A DNA stretch of 64,000 bases from Phoenix dactylifera (taxonomy: Eukaryota > Streptophyta > Magnoliopsida > Arecales > Arecaceae): positions 2,520,001 through 2,584,000 of the forward strand of contig NC_052409.1 in assembly GCF_009389715.1 (NCBI RefSeq). Reading direction: 5' to 3'. Below are positions 1,171 through 51,000 of the stretch, piece by piece. The position numbers and the translations under genes are program-made. Below the pieces are notes generated by a model. That model worked only from the letters and a program-made list of their open reading frames with translations. It was not told where the DNA came from and searched no databases. The number at the start of each line of letters is the position of its first letter. The stretch's first letter is position 1.

Positions 1171-1842
1171 TCACGGTCGGTGGGGACCGAGCTCAGACCG
1201 ACATTCACCAAGGTATCCTCGGAAATAAGGCGGGCCACCGGGGGGAGCTGGCCCTCGGCAACCAACCCCTTCAAGGCAAGCCAAGCCATCGGATTCCTCC
1301 CTCGACAGTCTCGATAGGCCGATCGGGGACTTCATCGGCGTCTCCCAGGTCGCCCTGATTTCCCAAGAGGGATCTACATCGATGAAGAAGAAACGCTCCT
1401 TCCAGCCGTGAATGGAGGAAGGAGCCTCTTTGACGAGGCCGCACCCTCGCCGCGCCGCAAAGCACCACCACCCTTTGTCCTGAGGGTGGCCACTCAGGCT
1501 GTAGAACTCCCAAAAAACATTCAGAGTGGCGGGAATCTCGTGCATGCGGCAGAGAACCTGGAAGACCGTCAGGGCACGCCACGAGTTCGGCACCAGTTGC
1601 GTCGGCGCAACTCTTAAACCCCGGAGTACCTGCACGACTAAGTCCGAAGGGGGAAAGCGGAACCCGGCCTGGAGAATGCCCTCATTGATGGCGATCTTCC
1701 CTGGAGGAGGATGGGACATCCTCTCCTCAGGCCCCGGGAGCGTAACGTTGCAGGCCTCGGGAAGGTGGTACCGAGCCACGAGTTTGTCTAAGTCCTCGGC
1801 GACCAGCTCCGACTTAATGCGGTCTGCTCTCACTTCGCCCAT
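1171..1842 (-). CDS. Antisense extra reading frame of the Ty3/gypsy element (Transposase_28-like)
   Basis: A 223-codon frame on the strand opposite to the element's LTR. Its middle part resembles the plant domain called putative gypsy type transposon (Transposase_28). It has the pattern of a hydrophobic stretch, then QLVPNSWRAL, then a Cys-Arg segment, then a GWKERFFFIDVD block in the second half. This domain is common in proteins carried by plant Ty3/gypsy and some CACTA elements, and its biochemical role is not known. The start at MGEVRAD is the first Met of the open frame and may not be the real one. It could also be a fragment of a host protein with this domain, but the LTR beside it makes the element origin more likely. 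Confidence 0.6.
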   Translation of the reverse strand: MGEVRADRIKSELVAEDLDKLVARYHLPEACNVTLPGPEERMSHPPPGKIAINEGILQAGFRFPPSDLVVQVLRGLRVAPTQLVPNSWRALTVFQVLCRMHEIPATLNVFWEFYSLSGHPQDKGWWCFAARRGCGLVKEAPSSIHGWKERFFFIDVDPSWEIRATWETPMKSPIGLSRLSREESDGLACLEGVGCRGPAPPGGPPYFRGYLGECRSELGPHRP

Positions 1843-3196: not shown

Positions 3197-3812
3197 TTTT
3201 ATTATTTAGTTTTTTGATATCACAGACAATGACAATTCATGTAGAAAGCAGTGCATGCCATGATCCGTCCTCCCCTGTTCTCTGAAAAAGAAAGAAACAA
3301 GACTTTGGTTTGGAATATCCGTGATGCTGGATTGTGAACTCTGCAGTTGCTGCACCATTAACTAATGAATCTTTCAGGGCAAGCTTCATCGGACTGGTTC
3401 AAAGCTCGTAAAACGGAGGTAACTTGCAATAAATGAATAAATTTAGAGAGCAGCACCCAAGTATAGGTGAGCACTGGAGTTTGCTGGTTTCACTGCAAAA
3501 TTCTTGATCTTGAGGTCAGACTTGTGAAGCAGGACTATTTTGGGTAGATGGATGAATTAGCTGAATTAGATCAAAAAGTTTGTCAGTGTGAATGCAGTTA
3601 AACGGACATATGGCATTCAAACTCATACAGATTTTAAACTGTTGTGGTACTTTAAATTGATGATTGGGTAATGGCGGTTGCTGATAGCCTCTGGACTGGT
3701 CACTCAATTGATGATTCTTTTTAAATTTAATTTAAATTTCCTATTTGAATCAGCCTGACATGACTTGTTACAGCAGGATGGAGTTAAGCTCATGCACCTC
3801 GGTTGCTCTGTG
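3197..3812. other. Non-coding stretch between two LTR elements
   Basis: AT-rich single-copy-looking DNA without a supportable gene. The longest open frame (minus, 63 codons) has no domain character. It ends at the target site of the copia element. Confidence 0.5.
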
Positions 3813-3891
3813 CCAAGTGTTAGATTTTTATTAAATAATAATTAAAAGTTTTCATACTTAAAATATATATATTATACATATATGTTAACAA

Positions 3892-3969
3892 GGGAGTTTG
3901 GCTTGGTGGTTGGTGCGTTGTTTGGGTGGGGATGAGATAACAGGTTCGATTCCCCATTCCCTCCTTTTT
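3892..3969 (+). repeat. tRNA-like / SINE-like module in the 5' LTR
   Basis: Shows an A-box-like tggcttggtgg (3899-3909), a perfect B box ggttcgattcc (3943-3953) and a T5 run (3965-3969), with gggag and ctcc at the ends where an acceptor stem would pair. The order and spacing are those of an internal RNA polymerase III promoter and of tRNA-derived SINE heads. The arms do not fold into a full cloverleaf, so it is not a working tRNA gene. Captured SINE or chance likeness cannot be told apart from one family. Confidence 0.55.
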
Positions 3970-4424
3970 ATTTCTATTACGTAAAGCTCGGTTCTCTTCT
4001 GCTCGTTGGGCCTGTGCTTGTCCGAGCCGAGGTTCTCTGCATCCGAGCTGTGCCTGTGCTTGTCCGAGCCAAGGTTCTTTGCGCATGTGCTTGTGCTCGC
4101 TGGGCCCTGCCTCTGCTCGTCCGAGGTTCTGTGCGCCTGTGCTCGTCCGACCCACCTTAACTGAAGCGCGAAGAGCCAAGGCCGAGGTCGGACCACAGGT
4201 GTGATGAGCCCAGAGGAGCCGAGGTCGGACAACGGGTATGATGAGCTAAGAGGTGCGTGGGCCGTGCCTCGTACCCATAGCACGAGGAGCCACGTCGCTT
4301 CCTCGTTAGCACCTCTTCGCAACCGACCTCGCATCCGCTGGCCATACTCCCAGTGTTTTTTCAAACTTTCTTACCGGTTTTGACCGTTGGATCGGTTTTG
4401 GGTTGCGTCTGTCCCGAAGAAGTC

Positions 4425-4432
4425 TATAAATA
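4425..4432 (+). promoter_or_regulatory. TATA box of the copia LTR
   Basis: TATAAATA in a context typical of plant core promoters. It predicts element transcription starting near 4455-4465, which would put the U3/R border about two thirds of the way through the LTR. The 3' LTR has the same box. Confidence 0.7.
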
Positions 4433-4825
4433 GACCTCTTCGGATTAGACAGGATATATATATATATATAATTTGAAAGCAGAGAACTTCTATTCTCCCT
4501 GTTTGCTATTTTTCTTTCAATCAACAGGCTTACTGCATACTGATTCTGGGTTCGAAGGCTTCTTTGATCCATGCAAATCATTGAGGCAGAAGGAACAGTG
4601 CGAGAGGCTGTTGTATCTCAGGAGTAGAACGCCATCTAAGCCTAGTGCACTGTAAGGCGGCGAAATCTACTTCAAGGAAAGTGACCAACATACCACGCCT
4701 CAGCATCTCGGGTTCCATTTTTCCACTTTCTCTATTTATTTTCTCTAAGCCTATTTCTGCCTATTATTTGTTGAAATAGAGTATTATAGATTTAAAATTT
4801 TCTGGGACAGTTTATTCCCAACATT

Positions 4826-4838
4826 CTTGAAGTAGATT
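4826..4838 (+). other. Putative primer-binding site of the copia element, self-complementary to the LTR
   Basis: The 13 bases start two nucleotides after the 5' LTR, the usual place for a primer-binding site. They do not match the initiator-Met tRNA site (TGGTATCAGAGC) used by most plant copia elements. They are exactly complementary to AATCTACTTCAAG at 4664-4676 in the same LTR (10303-10315 in the 3' LTR). Whether this pairing primes reverse transcription is inference. Confidence 0.5.
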
Positions 4839-4878
4839 ATTTCCTACATATAATAGGCTAGTACTTAGAGTTACCCCA

Positions 4879-7800
4879 ATGGCCAATGCAAGTGATCCGG
4901 TTCCTCCTGAAAAATTTAATGGAAACAACTTTAAACGTTGGAGACAGAAGATGGAAATCTTCTTAACTACACTTGGGTTATTTTCCATAATCTTTGACTC
5001 TCCTCCAAATGAGGAAGAGAATGAACCAGCTAGAACTTGTAATTTGGAGGAATTTAAGAAGAAAGACTACCTGTGTAGGGAAAGGATTCTGTCCTATCTT
5101 ACTGATCCCCTTTTTGATGTCTACTGCACTTTTAAAACCTCCAAGAAGATTTGGGATGATCTTAATAAGAAATATGGTATCCAAGATGCCGGAATGGACA
5201 AGTATGCTGCTAGTCAATTCCTGTCTTATAAGATGGTTGACACCAAGCCCGTAGTTGACCAAGCCCATGAGTTAACAGTGATTTATCATGAATTAGGCTT
5301 AAGGGGAATGGGAATAACTGAGAGCCTTCAAGTTGCTTGTACCATTGACAAGCTCCCACCTTCTTGGAAAGACTTTGGGTTATCCCTGAAACATAAAACC
5401 GAGGATATGACAATGAAAACTCTATTGTCTGCCATTAGGATCCAAGAACAACACCTTGAGAAAGATAATGAGCAACTCATGAATTCTGAGCTTCTAACCA
5501 AGGTGAATTTTGTAGAAAGCCAGAATAAGATCCATAAGTTCAAGAACTCCAAATTTGAAAAGGGTGGACTTAGAAACAAAAGAAAACCTATGAAGCCAAA
5601 ACACCATATCAATAAGAATGATCGAAAGCCGATTTGCTACAATTGTAGGAAACTCGGTCATATGGCTCGAATATGCCGGATGAAGAGGAAGAAGTATCAG
5701 AACTATGAACATGCGCCTTCTCAACCTGCAAATCTACAAACCAACATGGTGCTATCCAGTATTGGTCCTACTAGTACTGATGATCGGTATGTAAGTTTAA
5801 GTCCATAATTAAATTTGGCAATTTGCTCTACCGATTGGTTAGTGGATACAGGTGCGAATGTTCATATGTGTACTGATCATACCCTTTTTACTACTTATCA
5901 GGTCCGGAGTGGCCTAACAGTAACTATGGGGAACTCCACCTCGGCACGAGTGCTTGAAACTGGAAAAGTACTTCTAAGGCTTACGTCTGGAAATGTGCTT
6001 ACACTATTTAATGTGTACCATGTGCCCGATGGAAGGAGAAATCTGATCAGTGGATCTCTTCTAAATAGGAGTGGTTATTCTTTGTTATTTCAATCTAAGA
6101 AAGTGATTATAACAAAGAATGGAACATTTGTAGGCAAAGGCTATGAGTGTCATGATTTGTATGTAATAAATAATGTATCTTTGGATTTTTCTTCTGATAA
6201 CAATAATAAAATTGTGCTTTCAATATGTTCTTCATCTCTTTGGCATGCTAGATTAGAACATGTGAATAATAATACTATTAAAAGAATGATTAGCTCTGGT
6301 TTATTGCCTAATGTTTCATTAAATGAAAAGGAAAGGTGCCAAATTTGTGTTCAATCTAAACAATCTAGAAAACCATTAAAAATAGTAAATAGAAATTCAA
6401 CTTTATTAGAATTAATACATTCAGATGTATGTGATCTAAATGGAACTTTGACTAAAGGGGGTAGAAGGTATTTCATTACCTTTATAGATGATTATTCTAA
6501 GTATTGTCAAGTTTATTTAATGAAATCTAAAGATGAAGCATTTGAGATGTTTAAGACTTATAAATCTTTAGTAGAAAATCAACTTGACAAGAGAATAAAG
6601 ATTCTCAGGTCAGACAGAGGAGGAGAATACACCTCTAATGACTTGAATGAATTCTGTAGAGTTAATGGAATTCTACATGAAGTTACACCTCCCTATTCAC
6701 CTCAGTCTAATGGAGTGGCTGAAAGGAAAAATAGGACTCTGCAAGATATGGTAAGATCTTTGCTTGCCAACTCAGGTTTACCTGAGGTTTGGTGGGGGGA
6801 AGCAATGCTTACTGCATGTTTCCTGCTTAATAGGGTTCTATTTAAAGGTTCTAATAAATCTCCTTATGAACTTTGGAAAGGAAGAAAACCTAACCTAAAC
6901 TTTGTAAAAGTTTGGGATTGTTTGGCTAAGGTTAATATTCCTTTAATCAAGAAAAGAAAATTAGAACCTAATACTTTTGATGCTGTGTTTCTTGGTTATT
7001 CTCTTAATAGTGTTACTTATAGGTTCTTAGTCATTAATTCTGATATTAATGGCATAGATAAGAATACTATAATTGAATTTAAAGATGCTTCTTTCTTTGA
7101 AGACATTTTTCCATTTAAGGATAAAATAGAAAAGCATGTAATAGATAGATCTAATGATGCATCTTGTAGTTCGCCATCTAATTCTCTAATTATTCCTAAT
7201 AATGAAAATGAAAATGAACTTAATGATATTAATGAACTTGGTAAAGGAAAAAGAATTAGGAAAAAGAAAGATTTTGGATCTGATTTCTATACTTTTATGG
7301 TTGAAGATGATCCTAAAACTTATAAAGATGCTATGAACTCATTAGATTCTATGTTTTGGAAGGAAGCTATTAATAGTGAAATGAATTCACTTATGACCAA
7401 TAAAACATGGTTTTTAACTGACTTACCACCTGGTAGTAAGGCTATAGGTTGTAAATGGATATTTAAGAAGAAATTAAGACCTGATGGTTCTATTGAAAAA
7501 TATAAAGCAAGATTAGTTGCTAAGGGTTTTTCTCAGAAAGAGGGTATTGACTACTTTGATACATATTCTCCTGTAACTAGGATAACCACAATTCGTACTT
7601 TAATTGCACTGGCTTCAATCCATAATTTGATAATTCATCAAATGGATGTCAAGACTGCCTTCCTTCATGGTGATTTAGAGGAAGAGATCTATATGGATCA
7701 GCCAGAGGGATATGTGGCTCAAGGACAGGAAAGAAAAGTTTGTAGGTTAGTCAAATCCCTCTATGGTTTAAAACAAGCTCCTAAGCAATGGCATAGGAAA

Positions 7801-8857
7801 TTTGATAAAATTATTATTTCTTATGGCTTTAAAGCAAATGAATCAGATAAGTGCTTATATTCAAAGTTAGAAAATGATTCATGTATTATCTTGTGTTTAT
7901 ATGTTGATGATATTTTAATTTGGTACTGATATGAATATGGTGACTGATATCAAAACTTTCTTATCTAATAATTTTGATATGAAAGATTTAGGTCAGGCAG
8001 AGGTAATTCTTGGTAACAGGATTACCAGAATACCTGATGGTATAATTTTTGATCAATCACAATATATTGAGAAAATATTGAAGAAATTTGATAAGTACAA
8101 CTGTAAACCAGTGAGTACACCTTATGAGCATGGTTTGAACTTGAAATGCAATAAAGGTGATCCAGTGGCCCAAGAGAAATATGCTCAAATTATTGGGACA
8201 CTGATGTATGTTGCAAATACAAGTAGACCTGACATTTCTTATGCTATAGGAAAGCTTAGTAGGTTTAATAGTTGCCCTAGTCTTAGTCACTGGGAAGCAC
8301 TGGATAGAGTACTTAGATACTTGAGAGGTACAATATATTATGGTTTACATTACTCAAGATTTCCCACTGTACTTGAAGGATACAGTGATGCTAGTTGGAT
8401 CACTGATTCAGTGAATCAAAAAGGAACTAGTGGATACATATTCATGTTGGGTGGTGCAGCTGTTGCTTGGAGATCATTCAAACAAACTGTGATCACAAGA
8501 TCCACTATGGAGGCTGAGATTGTAGCCTTAGATTCTGCAAGTCAAGAAGCAGAATGGTTTAAAAATCTTATGTCTGAAATACCTATTATGGAAAAGCCTA
8601 TATCTGCTATCTCTTTGTTATGTGATAATGAAGCTGCAATTAATACTTGTAGAAATACTGAGTATAACAAGAGAAACAGAAGACACATTAGTGTGAGACA
8701 TAAGACTATTAGATACCTAATTAAAAATGGTATCATAACTTTGGAATTTGTTGGATCTAAAGATAACCTAGCAGATCCTTTAACTAAAGGACTGGCTAGA
8801 AACAAAGTCATAGAAACATCAAAGGGGATGGGATTGAAACCCATAAGGAATCATTGA
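4879..8857 (+). pseudogene. gag-pol region of the copia element
   Basis: Parts in order: a gag-like N-terminal part (about 4.9-5.8 kb) ending in a CCHC zinc knuckle (CYNCRKLGHMARICR); an aspartic protease with the DTGA motif; an integrase with an HHCC-like zinc region and a DDE core (about 6.2-6.9 kb); a reverse transcriptase with a YVDD box (about 7.3-8.2 kb); and an RNase H (about 8.35-8.8 kb). The order protease-integrase-RT-RNase H is that of Ty1/copia. The region is largely open with about two breaks, so it is treated as a recent fossil. Confidence 0.9.
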
Positions 8858-9418: not shown

Positions 9419-9429
9419 AGGTGGGGGAA
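9419..9429 (+). other. Polypurine tract of the copia element
   Basis: Purine-rich aggtgggggaa (one T) directly against the 3' LTR start, the expected primer site for plus-strand DNA synthesis. Confidence 0.85.
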
Positions 9430-10462
9430 TGTTAGATTTTTATTAAATAATGATTAAAAGTTTTCATACTTAAAATATATATATTATACATATATGTTAA
9501 CAAGGGAGTTTGGCTTGGTGGTTGGTGCGTTGTTTGGGTGGGGATGAGATAACAGGTTCGATTCCCCATTCCCTCCTTTTTATTTCTATTACGTAAAGCT
9601 CGGTTCTCTTCTGCTCGTTGGGCCTGTGCTTGTCCGAGCCGAGGTTCTCTGTGCCTGTGCTTGTCCGAGCCGAGGTTCTCTGCATCCGAGCTGTGCCTGT
9701 GCTTGTCCGAGCCAAGGTTCTTTGCGCATGTGCTTGTGCTCGCTGGGCCCTGCCCCTGCTCGTCCGAGGTTCTGTGCGCCTGTGCTCGTCCGACCCACCT
9801 TAACTGAAGCGCGAAGAGCCAAGGCCGAGGTCGGACCACAGGTGTGATGAGCCCAGAGGAGCCGAGGTCGGACAACGGGTACGATGAGCTAAGAGGTGCG
9901 TGGGCCGTGCCTCGTACCCATAGCACGAGGAGCCACGTCGCTTCCTCGTTAGCACCTCTTCGCAACCGACCTCGCATCCGCTGGCCATACTCCCAGTGTT
10001 TTTTCAAACTTTCTTACCGGTTTTGACCGTTGGATCGGTTTTGGGTCGCGTCTGTCTCGAAGAAGTCTATAAATAGACCTCTTCGGATTAGACAGGATAT
10101 ATATATATAATTTGAAAGCAGAGAACTTCTATTCTCCCTGTTTGCTATTTTTCTTTCAATCAACGGGCTTGCTGCATACTGATTCTGGGTTCGAAGGCTT
10201 CTTTGATCCGTGCAAATCATTGAGGTAGAAGGAACAGTGCGAGAGGCTGTTGTATCTCAGGAGTAGAACGCCATCTAAGCCTAGTGCACTGTAAGGCGGC
10301 GAAATCTACTTCAAGGAAAGTGACCAACATACCACGCCTCAGCATCTCGGGTTCCATTTTTCCACTTTCTCTATTTATTTTCTCTAAGCCTATTTCTGCC
10401 TATTATTTGTTGAAATAGAGTATTATAAATTTAAAATTTTCTGGGACAGTTTATTCCCAACA
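9430..10462 (+). repeat. 3' LTR of the copia element
   Basis: 1033 bp and about 99% identical to the 5' LTR in the aligned part. It has one extra 31-bp unit (gtgcctgtgcttgtccgagc...) in the GC-rich tandem region and a shorter TA run. The tRNA-like module recurs at 9504-9581 and the 13-mer complementary to the primer-binding site at 10303-10315. Confidence 0.95.
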
Positions 10463-10467
10463 CCAAG

Positions 10468-11605: not shown

Positions 11606-14600
11606 ATGAGTCGGAGCCTGGGGATACCGGTGAAGCTGCTGCACGAGGCGGCGGGGCATGTGGTGACGGTGGAGCTCAAGAGCGGCGAGCTCTACCGTGG
11701 GAGCATGGTCGAGTGCGAGGACAACTGGAACTGCCAGCTTGAGAACATCACCTACACCGCCAAGGTAAAACTCTCTCTCTCTCTCTCTTGGATTCGACTT
11801 AGGGTTTCTTGAGGGCTGGGTTTAACGTTCCCCTCTTTTTCATAAGATTAGAAGTCGTCTCGCTCGTTTTCTTTTCGTCCGTTTTATATCGCAATCAATT
11901 CCGCGCGTTTTTTCTTAAATTTTTTGATTCGACTGTGGAAACCCTATATGCACATCTAATTTGATAGGAAAGAAGGTGTTAGGCATATCAACTAAGTCAA
12001 GGTTGAGGAATGGCAGCAATTTCCCGAGTGCTGAGTTAGATTTCCAGCTATCCGCATTCTCACTGCTAAAGCATATACTTTTTAGAAGAAGGCCAATGTT
12101 GTTGAACCTGATTTCCTTCCATATACCTCGTTGTAAATGCTGTGCATAGCGTTTAGAACCATAGAACTCCACCCAAATGGCTCAAAAGAGTTTAAAATAA
12201 ACCTCAAGGTGCAAATAACTAATCCTCAAATGAACCTAGATATTGTGCCCACTGTATACCCCATCACCTTATTGCATCATAGACATGCCCTTAATTATTG
12301 ATCAAAATATTTTTTTGTCAGCCCAATAAAGTTTTTTCCATCTAGAAATAAGCCATGGCTTGAAGGTGAAATCCAAGAAATTAAATAATCTACTTGTATC
12401 AACAAGGGGTTACTCTTGAATTGTTGTTTAACCCGTGATTTAGTACATGCTTACAAAGAAAGATGCATGATATTGCCAAAAGATATAACAATAGGCTACT
12501 TTCAACTGTTGTATGTTCACAAGCAGAAGTATTGAGAAAAGCCACAGCCTCCACCATGTGGTACTGCTCTCCAGGTTTAACCTCCAAGCTTCTTGACCTA
12601 TTTTTGTTGAAGCTAACGGTTGCGCTTCTTGTAAAGACCATGTATTTGTCTGTGTTAGGATGAATTATATTGATGGATGGTTTGACATGCATTGCATTTT
12701 TCTTCTTAATAGGATGGAAAAGTATCACAACTTGAGCATGTTTTCATCAGAGGCAGCAAAGTAAGGTAAGCTCATCATGCCCTAAATTTTGAATTTGTTA
12801 GTTTGGTTAGATCAACATCTGAATGATTTTTATTACAGGTTTATGGTCATTCCTGATATGCTGAAAAATGCCCCAATGTTCAAACGTTTGGATGCAAGAA
12901 TCAGAGTATGGAATACTTCTTTTTCTTATCTTATTTTGATAGAGTAAGCATTTTCCTCATATTTTAACGTATTTGTTGCTTCATCAAGGGCAAAGGCTCA
13001 GCTCTTGGAGTTGGACGTGGCCGTGCAGTTGCTATGCGTGCTAGGGTGAGTTATACTTTTTTAACAATCCCTGACTTTTGTTATAATATTCTGCAAACTG
13101 TTTATTTATCTGTCAAGTCAAGTTTAAAATGAAATATTTTTTTCTTGTCTTATAGGTTCTTATTAGTTTGAGCTTACTATTATCATTGTTGTCCATGGTG
13201 CTTATTTTTTTTTAGAAGAGCCACTAAGTTTTGTTGTGTTCTTCTGTCATCCTTTCATGTTCTTTGCTAACATTCATTTATCTTGTGAAGGTCTTCCTCT
13301 TCCAGCAAGCTGGTTATCCCTGCCTTCTCATGTGTTATTCTTATCTTAGATGGGCTCAGTAATACGTTGTTATCACCATGAAAAACAACTAAGATTAACC
13401 TGAAATTAATTGGTCAAAAACTAAACAAGATAAGAAACTCATGGATACAGCATTTTATTCAATTACTTATTCGAGAATTTTAGTTATCTTAGAATTCATA
13501 TTTCTTGTGTCCAAATAGTTTATTATAGTCATAGGAGTTTGAAAAGGCCATACATCTCCACTGTGTTTAATAATTGTTGTCCTTAGAGTTGGGATTTAAG
13601 ATAATCATTCTGGTTATCATGATGACTTGTCCCTTATATTAGCTAAACTTTTATATACATGTCATTTTTATAAACTAGTGAAATTAAGTACCCGAACAAG
13701 ACCAGATAGAAGCCAATTAATATCACCTAAAATATGGGCTTTCTCATTGGTTATGGCTTGATGTGATATCATAATGCATTCAAATTTTCTCCTTATAGGT
13801 AGATAGTTGTCCTTAATTTCAGTTTCCACGAGCAGTGGGAATATGATAATGCCCTAACCATTGCAAGGGCTTTGTAAAAAGGGAAATGTCTGTATCTTCC
13901 ACAAGGAGGGGAGGTCAGGTGAGTTGAAAGTAGCCATAAGCTAATCTTCCTATTGTTAACAAAAGAATAAAAATATTTGAAATGGCATGATAAGAACTCC
14001 ACGTCTTTCATTGGTAGTAATATGGTACACTTTATTCAGAGGTATTAAATTGATTTGAAAATATCAAATTAATAGGTAACATCTAGGCATGATGTCATCT
14101 TCAGATGAGCTTTCAAGGCAGCCTTCCCCTATTTGCTTAAGAAATGAAACCCCAATCTGTAGTTCAGGGCAGAGCTAGAGCGTTTCTCAACAATTCCACA
14201 AGCACTCTTGCCAATACACCAAATATCTTGGGAATGACTAGTGAGAAAACTACGTTATTATCTCCACCCATCCCCACAAAATGGACTCAGTTTAAGTTAG
14301 CATAATAGCGTTGATTGGTCTTCTTGTACTCTATCCCTAATGCCCTATGCTCCAGGACATGGACTTGTGCACTCACCAAGGTGACCTGAATACTCAATGC
14401 AACGAGGGCAAATCCCCTCAGGCGTACAGTCCCTAATTCTGATGAGAATTAGTCCTTTTGTGTTTCTAGGGGGGAAAGGGTATCTCCACCCATCCCCACA
14501 AAATGGACTCAGTTTAAGTTAGCATAATAGCGTTGATTGGTCTTCTTGTACTCTACCCCTAATGCCCTATGCTCCAGGACATGGACTTGTGCACTCACCA

Positions 14601-15167
14601 AGGTGACCTGAATACTCAATGCAACGAGGGCAAACCCCCTCAGGCGTACGGTCCCTAATTCTGATGAGAATTAGTCCTTTTGTGTTTCTAGGGGGGAAAG
14701 GGTACTTTTTATCATGTGGATTGAGTTTCCCTTTTTCAGATCCCCTCAAACTCTCGAGAGGATAGGCGCACTAAAAATAATGAAACTAGAGTTTGTTAGC
14801 TATCATAATGCACTTCCTCCTAATCTTATGAACTAAAACAGTGACTTCTACCAAAAAAAAGTAACACCGTAAAACTTTCCTGACTCAAAAAATGAGAAGG
14901 TTAAGTTGTCCAACGAGGGTAATAATACAGATGAATCTCAATGACTTGTCATTTAGTATCCAGTCTCCATTTAGTATCACCATCTGCATAGTGCTTCAGG
15001 CTGAAACACATCATCATCTTTATTTGTTTATTTACTTGTTTGTTGTTTGTTTGCTTGCTTGCTTGTTTGTTTGTTTATTTTGATGTTCTCTCATGTTGTA
15101 GGCTCAAGCTGCTGGTCGTGTTGGTGCTGCTGCTGGTAGGGGTGGTGTGCCTCCAGTAAGAAGGTAG
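11606..15167 (+). CDS. SmD3: Small nuclear ribonucleoprotein Sm D3
   Basis: Core Sm protein that joins the seven-member ring on U1, U2, U4 and U5 snRNAs and is needed for pre-mRNA splicing in the nucleus. Five coding exons: 11606-11764, 12713-12765, 12839-12905, 12989-13045 and 15102-15167. All have GT-AG introns and keep frame, giving 133 aa, close to plant Sm D3 (about 130). The Sm1 motif is in exon 1 ([13 protein letters not shown]) and Sm2 in exons 2-3 ([16 protein letters not shown]). An Arg/Gly-rich tail ([18 protein letters not shown]) offers sites for arginine methylation, as in other Sm D proteins. The start begins [15 protein letters not shown], the family N-terminus; an upstream in-frame ATG at 11552 would add 18 residues and is unlikely. 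The last intron (2.05 kb) holds a tandem duplication. Confidence 0.97.
14259..14702. repeat. 222-bp tandem duplication in Sm D3 intron 4
   Basis: Copy 1 is 14259-14480 and copy 2 is 14481-14702, head to tail. I see about three substitutions between them (about 1.4%), so the duplication is recent. The unit resembles no family I know. It lies about 400 bp before the last exon's acceptor. Confidence 0.95.
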
Positions 15168-40757: not shown

Positions 40758-43700
40758 ATGGCAACCGAACCCGTCTCCATCTCCATGCCCCTCTTGAGAG
40801 TCAACCAAATTTGTCGACAAAGCCTAACATCGTCGATCTGGGAGACGGAGGAGAAGGTGCCCGCAATGCCGGAAGGGGAAGCCGTGGCCGGAGGCAGAGG
40901 AGGAGAAGGGAAGATGGCGATGGAGAGAGAGCACGACCAGGAGGACTTGACCCGGGAGATGCTGGAGATCATCGATTCGGTCCGGTCGTTCGGCGACTTC
41001 CGGCAGACGCAGCGGAAGGAGTGCTTCAACCTCGTCCGCCGGCTCCAGCTGGTGACTCCCCTGCTCGAGGAGACTAAGGAGCTCGAGACCCCGATTTCTG
41101 ATGCGGCGTATGAGAAGCTGTGCGACCTTGCGAAGGCATTCGCCGATGCCAAGAAGCTGTTGAGATGCTGTTATGATGGGAGCAAGATCTATCTGGTGAG
41201 TATTCCGTCTGAAATGGATCTTATAGTTGTTTTAGATCATTGAAAGGGGCAAAAAAATTGCATCTTTTCTGATTCAAACCGTAAAAAAACGTTTTTTTTT
41301 TTTTTATTATCAGGCACTAGAAAGTGGGGTAGTGGCGGGCAGATTTCACGTCGTCTATGAAAAGTTGAATCGTGCATTGGCTGGGATGCCGTACCATGAG
41401 CTCGGTATTACATATGAAGTGAAAGAGCAAGTAGGCCTCTCGCCCCTTCAAATTTTTTTATGATGTTACAAAATTCTTTCGTGTATGATATTTTCTCTAG
41501 TTCTTTTTGCTGAATTTATTAATTGGTGATGCTAAATAAGTTTTGCTAGTGATATTAAATGAATTCTTGTAGATTTACTTTACAGATTATTGTCCATTGA
41601 TGATAGATTTTGGTAAGAAATTTATGTTTCCATTCTGCATGGTTTTGTTGTACTTTTATGGACTGCAAGAAGAATCGAAGGGTCTCTTATTGTCTAAAGG
41701 AATGGAGAGACTCTTGATAAATTTGGGATTTGGCTAGAAGTGTTGTCGGTTGGCTGAAAACAGGAGTTTAGTTATTCTGGTTATGGTTTTGGGTACAATA
41801 GGGAAAATGCCCTAGTGGTCATACCCCTTCTTCCCTTCCATAAGGATCCAGGGTTGAGTCTTTGCTGGTGCATATTCCCAAGTATCAGGACCCACATTAC
41901 TTATCTTGTGTGGATCTTCCCCACTTTACTCTAAAGTATAAAAAAAGTATGGTTTTGTGTCTACTCTTGGATTAATATAAAATGTGGCTTATGATTCATA
42001 TAATCAAGATAAGATGTCCATTGCTGGTGCAAGGTATAGTTTATAGAAAGTATTAGGACATTTCTTACTGGGATTTGTTGAAAAATAGCTTGTCTCTATG
42101 TTTGTCCTTTATTAAAACTATGATTGCTCAATATCTAATCTAGGAGTATATAAAGTTTATTAGTAGGCGATATGATAATTTCCATCTCTCTCATTGTAGT
42201 GTTGCATTAAATAGATGATATGCTACTGGTCCATTTCATAACACAAATTAGCATTGGTTGTATTTATATCGTATATGATGGGATGATAATGTTAAAATAG
42301 ATATTTTCTGTCCATTTTGTAGCCTACTTGCCATAATGAATAAGTTCAAATCTGTAGGTTACCTATATACTAAAAGATTTCATTATAATTCTGGACTTGC
42401 TGCACCAAATTTGGATGCATTATCTTGATTTAGTAGCACAAGACTTCTGCTTGATGGAAGTTGCCTCTGAATCTAATATGCAAATGTGAGTGCACGGAAG
42501 CTTTTGCCTGTCATTAATTTATTCCTCTATTGTTATACCTACTGACACAGTTCAATGTTCAAAGACCATAGAATGTTTAAATTTCAAAAAAAAAAAAGAA
42601 AAGAGGAAGGCTTGAATTATGAAGTGTGATTTAGTTCTCAAGTTCACATGTAGTCCATATGAAGGCTTGAATTATTTATGTTCACCCTTTACAGATCATA
42701 TATCTATTTCTATCTTTTTTCTTTCTTTCTTTTAATCAAAGAATCTCATTATTTATTTTTTTTAATTATTTATCTTATTAATTATGGTCTGTCAAAAACA
42801 GTTGTGTGTTGTCAGTGCATCTGAAAATTCTCGCCACAGAGATTATATCTTATGTCTTCATCTTTACATGTTGAGTATCAACGGTACTTAAATCGATGTT
42901 CATTTAGCAAATTTCATTGGAACCTTATATAGAAACATTTGTGTTATGATGTAATTTGATCCTTTACATTATAAATTAAATTTTCTCATAATCATGCTTT
43001 CAGGTCGAGCTAATGAACATGCAACTTCAAAGGGCTAAGAGGAGAACAGATACTCAAGACATGGAGCTGGCTATGGATCTGATGGTCGTACTCTCTGGCG
43101 AGGAGGATCGGGATGTAGATAGGGCAATATTAGAAAGGCTGGCTAGTAGATTACAGCTACAAACTCTCCCAGACATAAGAGCAGAAACAATGGCTGTAAA
43201 AAAGCTTATCAAAAAAAGAAGTGGGCAATATGCTGAAAGTACTCAGCAGATCATAGACCTATTAAACAGATTAAAACAAATTGCCGGTATTGAAGACAGT
43301 AATGGGCTAAGTGAAGTTGCCTTGCCTAAATATTTGGAGAAATGTCCATCTTTGATGATTCCTAATGATTTCCTTTGTCCAATATCTCTAGAGATCATGA
43401 TGGATCCTGTCATTGTTGCAACAGGGCAGGTGCTTCAAATTGTTCAATGTTATTGCTCTTTCATTGTATAATTGGCAATATTTGCTGACAACTTGTTTCT
43501 TTCCTTCCTTTTCCAGACATTTGAAAGACGAAATATACAGAAGTGGTTGGATGCTGGCCATCGAACCTGCCCAAAGACTAGGCAAACTTTGGCCCACCTT
43601 TCGCTGGCGCCTAACTATGCCCTTAGAAACTTGATTTTGCAGTGGTGTGAGAAGAACAAAGTTGAATTACTAAAGCAAGAGGCGGATCTTGACTCTGAGC

Positions 43701-44557
43701 CTGCGGATCATGAAGAAGAAATATCCTCACTAGTCCAGGATCTTTCTTCCATACATCTTGATAAGCAGCGAAGGGCAGTTAAGAAGATTCGCATGCTTTC
43801 CAAAGAGAGCCCTGATCACAGAATTGCAATTGCTCAGAATGGAGGCGTCCCTGCCCTAGTCAGTCTTCTGACCTATCCTGATTCTAAACTCCAAGAGAAC
43901 ACTGTGACTGCGTTGTTGAACTTATCAATAGATGAAGAGAACAAACGGCTTGTAGCTAAAGAAGGAGCCATTCCTGCTATTATCGAGATTTTGAAGACAG
44001 GCACTGTGGCAGCTAAAGAGAACTCAGCAGCAGCTTTGTTCAGCCTATCTATGCTTGATGATATCAAGCTGATGATTGGGAATTTGGATGGTATACCTCC
44101 ATTGGTAGATTTATTGCAAAATGGGACAATTAGAGGCAAAAAGGATGCTGCTACTGCACTCTTCAATTTGATTCTAAACAATAAGAACAAAGCCAGAGCT
44201 GTAGATGCAGGCATCATAGCACCTCTACTTCAAGTACTGGGTGATAAGAACCTGGGTATGGTTGATGAAGCTCTCTCGATTCTCTTTCTTCTAACATTAC
44301 ACCCTGGTGGGCGCAATGCAATAGGACAGCAATCATTCATTCAAACCCTTGTAGAATTCATCAAGGAAGGGACTTCCAAAAACAAGGAATATGCGCTCTC
44401 TGTTCTTCTAGAACTGGGATCACATAACCCATTGCTCTTATCGGCTGCACTCCAGTTTGGTGTTTGGAATCACTTGGCTGAGGTGGTAAATAGTGGAACT
44501 GACCGAGCTCAAAGGAAAGCAAGGGCCCTAATGAGCAAGTGTGAACAAGTACAATGA
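40758..44557 (+). CDS. U-box/ARM E3 ubiquitin-protein ligase (PUB, UND-domain class)
   Basis: Transfers ubiquitin from an E2 to substrate proteins. Four coding exons: 40758-41195, 41314-41430, 43004-43429 and 43517-44557, all in frame, giving 673 aa against about 610-660 in this class (PUB10-15). Parts: an N-terminal UND helical domain (about residues 60-290); a U-box (about 303-372) with [18 protein letters not shown] and CPKTRQTL; then ARM repeats (about 400-660) with blocks such as [16 protein letters not shown] and [15 protein letters not shown]. An 87-bp intron falls inside the U-box, right after ATGQ. The start is uncertain: Met codons at 40866 or 40914 would drop the first 36 or 52 residues, which are poorly family-like. 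It looks closest to PUB15-type proteins, but the exact orthologue is not settled. Confidence 0.93.
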
Positions 44558-48075: not shown

Positions 48076-51000
48076 ATGGGTGCCGACGGCGACTCCGTCG
48101 ACGCGGGCGACTCGGCCGCCGCCGCCGCCGCCGCCGTTGGGGGTGGGGCCACCGTCCACATCCGCTCCTCCAACGGGTCCAAGTTCTCCGTCCAGACGGA
48201 CCTCGAGTCCACCGTGGGATCGTTCAAGGTCGTTCTTGCGGAGAAGTGCGACGTGCCGCCCGAACAGCAGCGGTTGATCTATAAAGGCCGGATTCTGAAG
48301 GACGAACAAACCCTAGCGAGCTATGGTTAGCCATTCTTGCTGATTTTTTTGGCTCTATATGATGGATTTTTTGATCTACAGTAGATGATATGGTTTTGAG
48401 TTAAGAATCATCAAAGCCTAATTGTTTATGTTGATTTGTTCATGAATTTGCTTAGTATAGATAAAGGAGTGTGGAATCTTGAATTAATGAGCACTGTGGA
48501 GATTGTTCCGACGGTTCTTTGTGATTGCCTGTTTGTTGTTGATTAGGAGTTAGTATTGGGATTATCTGCTGAAGTATGGACAACTAGGCAAGAACGGTGT
48601 ATTTCAGATCACTGTTGCTTCCTTTATGGCAAGGTTCAGAGGATTTTTTTTTTTTAATAAATTGATAGGTTCAGATGTTTAGGGTTTCGTTAGGTCAAAT
48701 GTCACCACATGACCCGATTTGATGGGGTGCTTTGATGTGTGAAGGAAACAACTTGCAAAAAATGCTTGAAAAAGCTACTTTACCTGAACCACTCACCTCC
48801 AAAAATCAAAGGCTTAACCTGAGATATGGAGCTGCAGTAGGATGCTTTTTTCGGAGTCTGGAATGGACCAATTATATTGTTGTGGCAGAGATAAGAAGAA
48901 TTTACGTATTCGGTTCTTGGTGTGTCAAGGAGGAAGAGAAACTTTTGGATGGGTTTAGAAGCACCTAGAAATGGGTTGGTCAAGGTTAAATACAAATAAC
49001 TTCATTTTGGATGGTACGAATGTGGTGGATATATGTTGGTCTGGCAAGAGTTGACAAGGTGAACCATGCTGGGTTTTACCAGACCTTGTATGGTGCAAGG
49101 GATTTCATTAATGGGATTTTTGTTTTGCTATTATATCTGCCTTACATAATACTAGATAATTTTGGTCTTCTAAGGAAGCCCAAGAAGCATATGATGGTCA
49201 TTTATAAATAAATAATATCTTGTTCTGGCTGCGATTGATAACAAGTCAATAGTAAGTATTGTACAACAGTAATAGTTGGAAAGAATAATGAGGAAAATCA
49301 TTGGTTTTGCTAACTAGCTTACTAGATTGGATAGTGTGATATAGAAATATGACCAATGGCATTAGAAGCATTAGATATTGCATTTCTGCAAGTGGCTAAT
49401 TGCCACTTGCAAAGGCTTGAGAACTTTCTTTCATGAATGTGTAATTGACAATTACTAGGATTTGAAGACAGGCCTGCACTTTAGCTTGATTTTGTAAATC
49501 ACTTATGACTCCTTGACTTGGTTGGAGTACATAAAGTCGTTTTTTCGATGTCATGGAGGCTAATTCGTAGGCATAGAATAGCATCAAGTAGGAAGAGTTC
49601 GATCATATTTGGCTCTTCTTTTTTTAAAAAAGTTTTTATTTTTATATATCTGAGTGTTTTTTTGGGCGATCCACATTGCCTTATTGCTCAACAGAACTGC
49701 TTTGCCTTTTAAATATAATATCAAAGGCTGAGTAATTATGGGGACGAGGCACTTCTTTTTCAACCTCTGTTGTCTCTGATGGGTACGGATTTTTTACTCT
49801 TCTTTATCTTGGCAGGTGTGGAGTCTGATCACACTATTCACTTGGTTCGTGGTTTTGCATCGTCAACTGCATCTACTGATCGAGCTTCAAGAACACCAAA
49901 CAGCATTTCAGAGGTTGCAAGGGGTGTTGATTCCAATGAAGGTGGGGGTTCTGGAGCTGCTTTTGGAGGTTCACCATTTCCTGGTCTTGATGCTAATATG
50001 CTAGGTGGTAGTGGAGGATCCAATTTGTTTGGATTTGGATTACCAGAGTTTGGTCAGGTGCAACAACAGCTGACTCAGAATCCTACTATGATGAGGGAAA
50101 TAATGAACCTGCCTGTTTTTCAGAGCCTGATGAATAACCCTGAGCTACTGCATAACATGATCATGAACAATCCGCAAATGCGTGAGATCATAGACCGAAA
50201 TCCTGATCTAGCACATGTACTTAATGACCCCAGCACTCTCCGACAGGCTCTGGAAGCTGTAAGAAATCCTGAACTCATGAGAGAAATGATGCGAAACACT
50301 GACAGGGCTATGAGCAACATTGAATCTTCTCCAGAAGGATTTAACATGCTCAGGCGTATGTATGAAACTGTTCAGGAGCCATTTCTCAATGCCACAACAA
50401 TGACAAGGGACGCAGGAAGCGATTTGGGTTCTAATCCATTTGCAGCCCTTCTTGGAAATCAGGGTGCTACCCAGTCTAGGGATCCATCTCCAAACCCTTC
50501 GACTACTGGTTCTGAAGCAACAACTGGGTCTGCTGAACCAAATGCTAACCCGCTTCCAAATCCTTGGGGCAGTGCTGGTAAGTTTTGCTTGTTTCACTTG
50601 TTTGCTTGATCTTATATGCCTTTTGATACTTTGAAAAGTTCTTTCAATAGCAGGAGGTCCACAAACAACCAATTCAAGGTCAAGTCCTGCCAGTGATGCA
50701 AGGACTTCTGGCGCTGGGTTAGGCAGGCTTGGATTACCAGAATTGGAAAGGATGGCTGGTGGTATGGCGGACCCATCCCACTTAAATCAGATTATGCAAA
50801 ATCCAGCCATGATGCAGATGATGCAGAGCCTCCTCTCCAACCCTCAGTTCATGAATCAGGTATCTGTTTCCTTTTAGCCTAGGGTTAGAACTCTTCGTGT
50901 GACCTGTCTTACCTTGTGATTGTTGATTGCCATTAGATCTTAGGTCTCAATCCCCAGCTCCGTAACTTGGTGGAATCCAATACCCAGATGAGAGATATGT

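What the first reader, a model, noticed from the sequence alone, without database searches (positions are those of the whole stretch)
4664..4838. Copia element whose primer-binding site is complementary to its own LTR (candidate self-priming)
The 13 nt that begin two bases after the 5' LTR (4826-4838) are the exact reverse complement of AATCTACTTCAAG inside the LTR (4664-4676; also 10303-10315). A chance 13-nt complement within about 1 kb is very unlikely (about 1 in 10^4 to 10^5). The place is where a primer-binding site should be, and the usual initiator-Met tRNA site is absent. Self-priming by a folded-back transcript is established for the Ty3/gypsy element Tf1 of fission yeast. In Tf1, however, the primer is the first 11 nt of the RNA, while here the segment lies about 200 nt after the predicted start. 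I know of no such case in plant Ty1/copia.
Basis: partly seen in the sequence, partly recalled or inferred. Interest (0 to 1): 0.75.

Follow-up and report, generated by a model that had tools for sequence, protein, structure and literature searches.

The report
Plant copia element, self-complementary primer site
A plant jumping gene carries, where most such elements bind a cellular tRNA to start copying, a 13-base site that matches a piece of its own end repeat instead; this looks like self-priming, which has already been predicted for a whole lineage of plant elements, so it is a fresh example rather than a new phenomenon.

Summary
The element is a Ty1/copia element with LTRs at 3818-4823 and 9430-10462 and a CCAAG target duplication. 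Two bases after the 5' LTR, CTTGAAGTAGATT (4826-4838) is the exact reverse complement of LTR 4664-4676; the copy in the 3' LTR (10303-10315) is identical. Of 20,000 dinucleotide shuffles of the LTR, 1 gave a match this long. No TGG, needed by any full tRNA, occurs before 4880, whereas L005 and both units of L003, more distant copia elements, carry TGGTATCAGA at the corresponding place. The claim of no plant copia precedent is wrong: Neumann et al. 2019 (PMC6317226, passages) predict self-priming for 12% of the plant LTR elements analysed and for the Ty1/copia lineage TAR by the same kind of test, and cite an earlier proposal for rice Houba and Osr-1. I could not test TAR membership (no named reference sequences) or covariation (no eukaryotic genomes held). 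The closest relative found (L001) has no readable LTR end. The one real difference from Tf1 is position: the primer segment lies inside the LTR, about 200 nt after the predicted RNA start. Pairing is not in the predicted minimum-energy fold. This copy is coding-defective. New member of a known kind.

The parts
3813..3817 (+). target site duplication CCAAG, left copy
   Evidence: right copy at 10463-10467
3818..4823 (+). 5' LTR, TGTTAGAT...TCCCAACA
4424..4432 (+). TATA-box-like CTATAAATA; predicted RNA start about 4455-4500 (inferred)
   Evidence: motif match only
4618..4628 (+). LTR stretch predicted to pair with the primer segment in the free fold (competing hairpin)
   Evidence: prediction only
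4664..4676 (+). candidate self-primer segment AATCTACTTCAAG inside the 5' LTR
4826..4838 (+). primer-binding-site position, CTTGAAGTAGATT, exact complement of 4664-4676
4879..5808 (+). gag reading frame (Retrotran_gag_2, zinc knuckle)
5815..7929 (+). pol reading frame: pre-integrase, integrase, first part of reverse transcriptase; same frame as gag, separated from it by a stop
7931..8857 (+). rest of reverse transcriptase and following pol region in another frame: coding break within RT
9420..9429 (+). polypurine tract, approximately GGTGGGGGAA, before the 3' LTR
   Evidence: read from the sequence
9430..10462 (+). 3' LTR
10303..10315 (+). identical copy of the primer segment in the 3' LTR
10463..10467 (+). 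target site duplication CCAAG, right copy

Best explanation
This is a plant Ty1/copia element whose family starts minus-strand DNA synthesis from a piece of its own transcript instead of a tRNA. SHOWN: a perfect 13-nt complement between the site two bases after the 5' LTR and an LTR segment, present in both LTRs, and no whole-tRNA site. INFERRED: in the particle, RNA 4664-4676 (of the same or a second packaged transcript) anneals to 4826-4838; a cut after 4676 (by RNase H in Tf1) leaves a 3' end whose extension copies 4825 backwards into U5. If the cut is in the same molecule, the first DNA covers 4825 back to 4677 and can jump to the 3' LTR only if the RNA's poly(A) site lies beyond that segment; if the primer comes from a second RNA, copying can run to the RNA's 5' end. 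Copying of the primer into plus-strand DNA would renew the site each round and keep the two 13-mers identical. Most likely it belongs to the self-priming plant copia type described as lineage TAR, but that filing was not tested.
For: Exact 13/13 complement at the primer-site position; 1 of 20,000 shuffles as long. No TGG before 4880. Of six loci scanned for TGGTATCAGA, two have it (L005 once, L003 twice), each time at the place inferred for an LTR end, in L005 also two bases after CCCAACA; the longest self-complement of L005 there is 8 nt (its LTR start is inferred). The 13-mer is identical in both LTRs, which differ by 10 transitions over 1,002 aligned bases. In a scan of 25-nt LTR windows the strongest predicted duplex with the site is at 4658, -21.4 kcal/mol; the best window that does not overlap the segment gives -12.3. 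A published survey finds this arrangement in a whole plant copia lineage by a comparable rule: at least 10 bp complementary to the 5' LTR, starting 0-5 bp after it (PMC6317226, passages); the element meets that rule.
Against: Only one element was examined; no covariation among copies. The 13-bp helix is not in the minimum-energy fold of the predicted leader (-99.8 free against -93.2 forced; highest pair probability 0.0001 to 0.009 over three assumed starts); the LTR segment prefers a local hairpin and the site prefers U5. It does form in the optimum of the shorter piece 4640-4878. Pairing beyond the 13 nt is no better than chance (747 of 5,000 flank shuffles as good). The primer segment is internal, unlike Tf1, so an internal cut or a second RNA must be assumed. 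The closest relative found, L001, gave no complement of 10 nt or more at the 11 candidate LTR ends tested, best 8 nt, and 9 nt at best anywhere in 3745-3800, though its LTR end is unknown.
Confidence: 0.68

Rival explanations
1. Coincidence: the real primer site has been lost or lies elsewhere and the 13-nt complement is a chance match in an AT-rich, coding-defective copy.
For: 60 of 62,938 false LTR ends in the same window reach 13 nt or more; this copy has coding breaks.
Against: 1 of 20,000 shuffles. The LTRs differ by only 10 transitions over 1,002 aligned bases, so there was little time for a tRNA site to decay beyond recognition, and no TGG remains between 4824 and 4879.
Confidence: 0.12
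2. The pairing is an RNA structure (a U5-leader stem that controls packaging, dimer formation or start of copying), and priming is by another molecule.
For: Retroviral U5-leader stems (recalled) and the U5-IR-like structure required by Tf1 (seen only as a reference title) are precedents; the site also pairs with U5 in the free fold.
Against: The pairing starts exactly where a primer site should, two bases after the LTR, leaving no room for another primer there; flanking complementarity is not above chance.
Confidence: 0.1
3. A half-molecule tRNA or another host small RNA is the primer and the LTR match is secondary.
For: Half-tRNA primers occur in the plant copia lineages Osser, Bryco, part of Gymco-II (tRNA-Met) and Bianca (tRNA-Ile) (PMC6317226, passages).
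Against: This is weak: the list is recalled and partial, and no plant tRNA set was held.
Confidence: 0.1

Closest known systems
TAR lineage of plant Ty1/copia (rice Houba, Osr-1; Arabidopsis ATcopia95)
   Same: Plant Ty1/copia; post-LTR site predicted complementary to its own 5' LTR (PMC6317226, passages; member names from PMC9033089, passage).
   Different: No difference was found, but none could be looked for: lineage phylogeny and the position of the primer segment in published TAR elements could not be checked here.
Tf1 of fission yeast and the Tf1/sushi group (Ty3/gypsy)
   Same: Primer site complementary to the element's own transcript.
   Different: Ty3/gypsy, not copia; [quoted passage not shown] here the segment begins about 165 to 210 nt after the predicted start.
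Tj1 of Schizosaccharomyces japonicus
   Same: Primer site complementary to a segment of the 5' LTR, proposed self-primer (PMC4600332, passages).
   Different: The segment is described as the 5' end of the mRNA.
Ordinary copia with tRNA-iMet primer (L005, a plant-type element in a Streptomyces record)
   Same: Same layout; site two bases after ...CCCAACA.
   Different: L005 has TGGTATCAGAGC; the window element has CTTGAAGTAGATT.
Half-tRNA-primed copia (Bianca, Osser, Bryco)
   Same: Copia without a site for a whole tRNA.
   Different: Their sites match tRNA halves; no such match seen here (ten recalled tRNAs only).

Membership tests
Ty1/copia LTR retrotransposon | paired LTRs with 5-bp target duplication | tested here: met
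   LTRs 3818-4823 and 9430-10462, CCAAG on both sides
Ty1/copia LTR retrotransposon | copia-type gag, and integrase before RVT_2 reverse transcriptase | tested here: met
   Pfam order Retrotran_gag_2, zf-CCHC, Pol_BBD, gag_pre-integrs, rve, SH3_retrovirus, RVT_2
TAR lineage | clusters with TAR in RT/RH/INT phylogeny | not testable with these tools
   No named TAR reference sequence was obtained; similarity to TAR is only recalled
TAR lineage | site 0-5 bp after the LTR complementary to the own 5' LTR over 10 bp or more | tested here: met
   13 nt, 2 bp after the LTR; rule from PMC6317226
TAR lineage | no tRNA 3'-end primer site | tested here: met
   first TGG after the LTR at 4880
Tf1/sushi self-priming group | Ty3/gypsy polyprotein | tested here: not met
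   copia domain order and RVT_2
Tf1/sushi self-priming group | primer is the 5' end of the RNA | tested here: inconclusive
   TATA-like motifs at 4424 and 4455-4470 put the start about 165-210 nt upstream of 4664; start site not mapped
Self-priming mechanism | LTR RNA cut and extended into minus-strand DNA | not testable with these tools
   needs RNA and cDNA end mapping
Self-priming mechanism | primer segment and site covary among copies | not testable with these tools
   no whole genome held for the window; L001 inconclusive

The most novel reading that the evidence does not exclude
The primer is cut out of the middle of the LTR RNA, about 200 nt from its 5' end, rather than from the RNA's tip as in Tf1, and its release is gated by a switch between an LTR hairpin (4618-4676) and the 4664-4676/4826-4838 helix. 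The first minus-strand product would then end at 4677, which would force the strand jump to use only the downstream part of R.
Probability: 0.2. Interest if true: 0.55.

Novelty: new member of a known kind. Interest (0 to 1): 0.25.

Why it matters
It adds one well-delimited plant copia element to those with a self-complementary primer site, and it points to an open mechanical question. In the listings of my literature searches and the passages I read, I saw sequence predictions but no experimental proof of self-priming in a plant element; most listed papers were not opened. An internal primer segment would need a different cut and first strand jump from Tf1. Elements that need no tRNA might also escape host control by tRNA fragments (recalled idea; only the start of the abstract of PMC7472051 was seen, in the listing).

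Tried and rejected
Searches for relatives. IMG/VR gave none in four scans: three by protein or alignment, in which 7, 5 and 36 stretches matched a pattern but none encoded a relative, and one for the paired 13-mers (0 stretches). Phages gave none. The single genome-contig scan gave 3 loci (L001-L003) and plasmids gave 4 records, of which I opened 2 (H1 and H2 = L004 and L005); H3 and H4, 34-35% identical, were not opened. L001 to L005 look to me like eukaryotic elements that are contaminants or misfiled (inference). They supplied controls (L003, L005) but no named TAR reference. L004 ends before its primer site; L002 and L001 do not contain TGGTATCAGA.

L001, 77% identical over a 102-residue RT stretch and 70% in the RT alignment of 182 columns, holds pol, then a single LTR-like region, then gag, so I tested it for a different but matching pair. 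At the 11 candidate CA ends examined the best complement was 8 nt; the longest in 3745-3800 that could be of interest is 9 nt, 3753-3761 with 3661-3669. Its LTR end cannot be fixed, and a degenerate TAGTATCAGT at 3616 (two mismatches) leaves even the tRNA-Met possibility open, so I count it neither way.

A longer duplex beyond the 13 nt looked attractive, but flank shuffles matched it 747 times in 5,000 and flanks from elsewhere in the window 664 times in 5,000; rejected. The whole leader is not unusually structured (z -1.45, 9 of 100 shuffles as stable).

A text search for the 13-mers in papers listed 13 papers, none with a title on retrotransposons (listing only). A search for DANTE-LTR listed only unrelated tRNA papers among the 8 shown of 540. 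The oil palm LTR paper PMC4608283 (one passage) has no whole word TAR or tRNA and mentions PBS once, in a definition. PMC2206039 and PMC4659654 (passages) use 'self-priming' only in the title of a PCR reference. The palm origin of the window was not tested.

Full report
The element. The window holds one retrotransposon with both LTRs that the repeat search could find: 3818-4823 (1,006 nt) and 9430-10462 (1,033 nt), flanked by CCAAG on both sides and ending TGTTAGAT...TCCCAACA. Pfam gives the Ty1/copia order gag, zinc knuckle, pre-integrase, integrase, SH3-like, RVT_2. The LTRs differ by 10 transitions and no transversions over 1,002 aligned bases plus 35 gap columns, a Kimura distance of 0.010, so the insertion is young (about 0.4 to 1.9 million years with the two rates assumed in the script). 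This copy is defective: gag and pol share a frame but are separated by a stop near 5806-5808, and pol changes frame within reverse transcriptase near 7929-7931.

The observation. CTTGAAGTAGATT at 4826-4838 is the exact reverse complement of LTR 4664-4676, and the same LTR segment stands at 10303-10315. The match starts two bases after the LTR. Among complements between the stretch 4815-4878 and the LTR it is the longest; the next is 9 nt. Of 20,000 dinucleotide shuffles of the LTR, 1 gave 13 nt under the rule that the match start 0-5 nt after the LTR. Against real sequence the result is less extreme: 60 of 62,938 positions treated as false LTR ends reach 13 nt or more; the 40 that were printed fall at three places, one in or beside a TATTA array.

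No whole-tRNA site. Any whole-tRNA site begins with TGG; the first TGG after the LTR is at 4880, inside the gag start. Of six fetched loci scanned, two carry the usual tRNA-Met motif TGGTATCAGA: L005 two bases after ...CCCAACA, and L003 in both its units after ...ACA; L001, L002, L004 and L006 do not have it, but L004 stops short of the place and L006 repeats L001. The LTR ends of L003 and L005 are inferred, not fixed by an LTR pair. The longest self-complement of L005 at that place is 8 nt, inside its tRNA site. ARAGORN found no tRNA gene in the window and Rfam no family at its gathering score.

Structure. With the RNA start assumed at 4457, the free fold is -99.8 kcal/mol and the fold with the 13 pairs forced is -93.2; with starts at 4495 and 4500 the gaps are 3.6 and 4.8 kcal/mol; the pairs reach probabilities of 0.0001 to 0.009. 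In the free fold the LTR segment pairs with 4618-4628 in a local hairpin (-20.5 kcal/mol for 4615-4680) and the site pairs with bases of 4775-4789 in U5. In the shorter piece 4640-4878 the 13-bp helix is in the optimum. Pairing outside the 13 nt is no better than for shuffled flanks (747 of 5,000 as good) or flanks from elsewhere in the window (664 of 5,000). So the helix is affordable but would need annealing help or a second RNA; prediction neither proves nor excludes it.

Mechanism. The anatomy fits priming by an LTR-derived RNA: the 3' end of the segment (4676) pairs with 4826, and extension would copy 4825 and then U5. [quoted passage not shown] Here the TATA-like motifs found in the LTR are TATATA at 3864-3871, CTATAAATA at 4424 and a TATATA run at 4455-4470; taking the last two, the segment lies roughly 165 to 210 nt into the RNA. 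If cut from the same molecule, the first DNA would stop at 4677, and the jump to the 3' LTR would need the poly(A) site to lie downstream of that segment; poly(A)-like motifs occur at 4733-4780, which is compatible, but also upstream at 4429, 4473 and 4611. If the primer comes from a second packaged RNA, copying could run to the RNA end. All of this is inference.

Relation to what is known. Neumann et al. 2019 (PMC6317226; abstract, passages and part 2 of the reference list seen) surveyed 5,410 Ty1/copia and 8,453 Ty3/gypsy plant elements. They predicted self-priming for 12% of elements by looking for at least 10 bp, starting 0-5 bp after the LTR, complementary to the 5' LTR; [quoted passage not shown] PMC9033089 (passage) lists Houba, Osr-1 and ATcopia95 as TAR. 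The window element meets the same rule. I could not place it in TAR: no named reference sequence was obtained. My impression that its gag and RT look TAR-like is recollection, not a test.

Covariation, the test that matters, could not be done. The closest relative, L001 (a plant-like contig in a Robertmurraya assembly; 77% identical over 102 RT residues; 70% in the 182-column alignment), has no definable LTR end and no complement of 10 nt at the 11 candidate ends tested. It does not support the reading; it cannot be called evidence against it either.

Verdict. Observation confirmed; self-priming is the best reading (0.68); novelty claim not supported. The element is a new member of a known kind. 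The residual interest is the internal position of the primer segment and that I saw no biochemical proof for plants in the listings and passages of my searches.

Noticed in passing
L004 (NZ_CP115454.1), L005 (NZ_CP115302.1): Two records filed as small plasmids of Kitasatospora and Streptomyces are Ty1/copia retrotransposon sequence (pol related to the window's RT; L005 also has an LTR end and tRNA-Met primer site), apparently plant contamination.
   Followed up: partly
L001 3249-3800: A contig in a Robertmurraya assembly (coverage 0.3 in its title) runs from pol through a single LTR-like region into gag, as if from a collapsed or circular copia element; its primer site is unreadable.
   Followed up: partly
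L003 1-10780: Contig in an uncultured Trichormus MAG carries copia units in tandem with short LTR-like regions between them and tRNA-Met primer sites at 3214 and 8265.
   Followed up: no
window 9622-9682: Two perfect copies of a 31-nt unit in the 3' LTR; the 3' LTR is 27 nt longer than the 5' LTR.
   Followed up: no
window 14259-14704: Two tandem copies of a 222-nt unit, 98% alike.
   Followed up: no
window 40758-44557: Reading frames with PUB10 N-terminal, U-box and Armadillo domains: probably a plant U-box ubiquitin ligase gene in several exons.
   Followed up: no
window 49770-50609: Reading frame with a ubiquilin-like domain.
   Followed up: no
window 1171-1842 (minus strand) and 2439-2689: Reading frame with a Transposase_28 (gypsy-type) domain and a nearby 69-nt minisatellite.
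   Followed up: no
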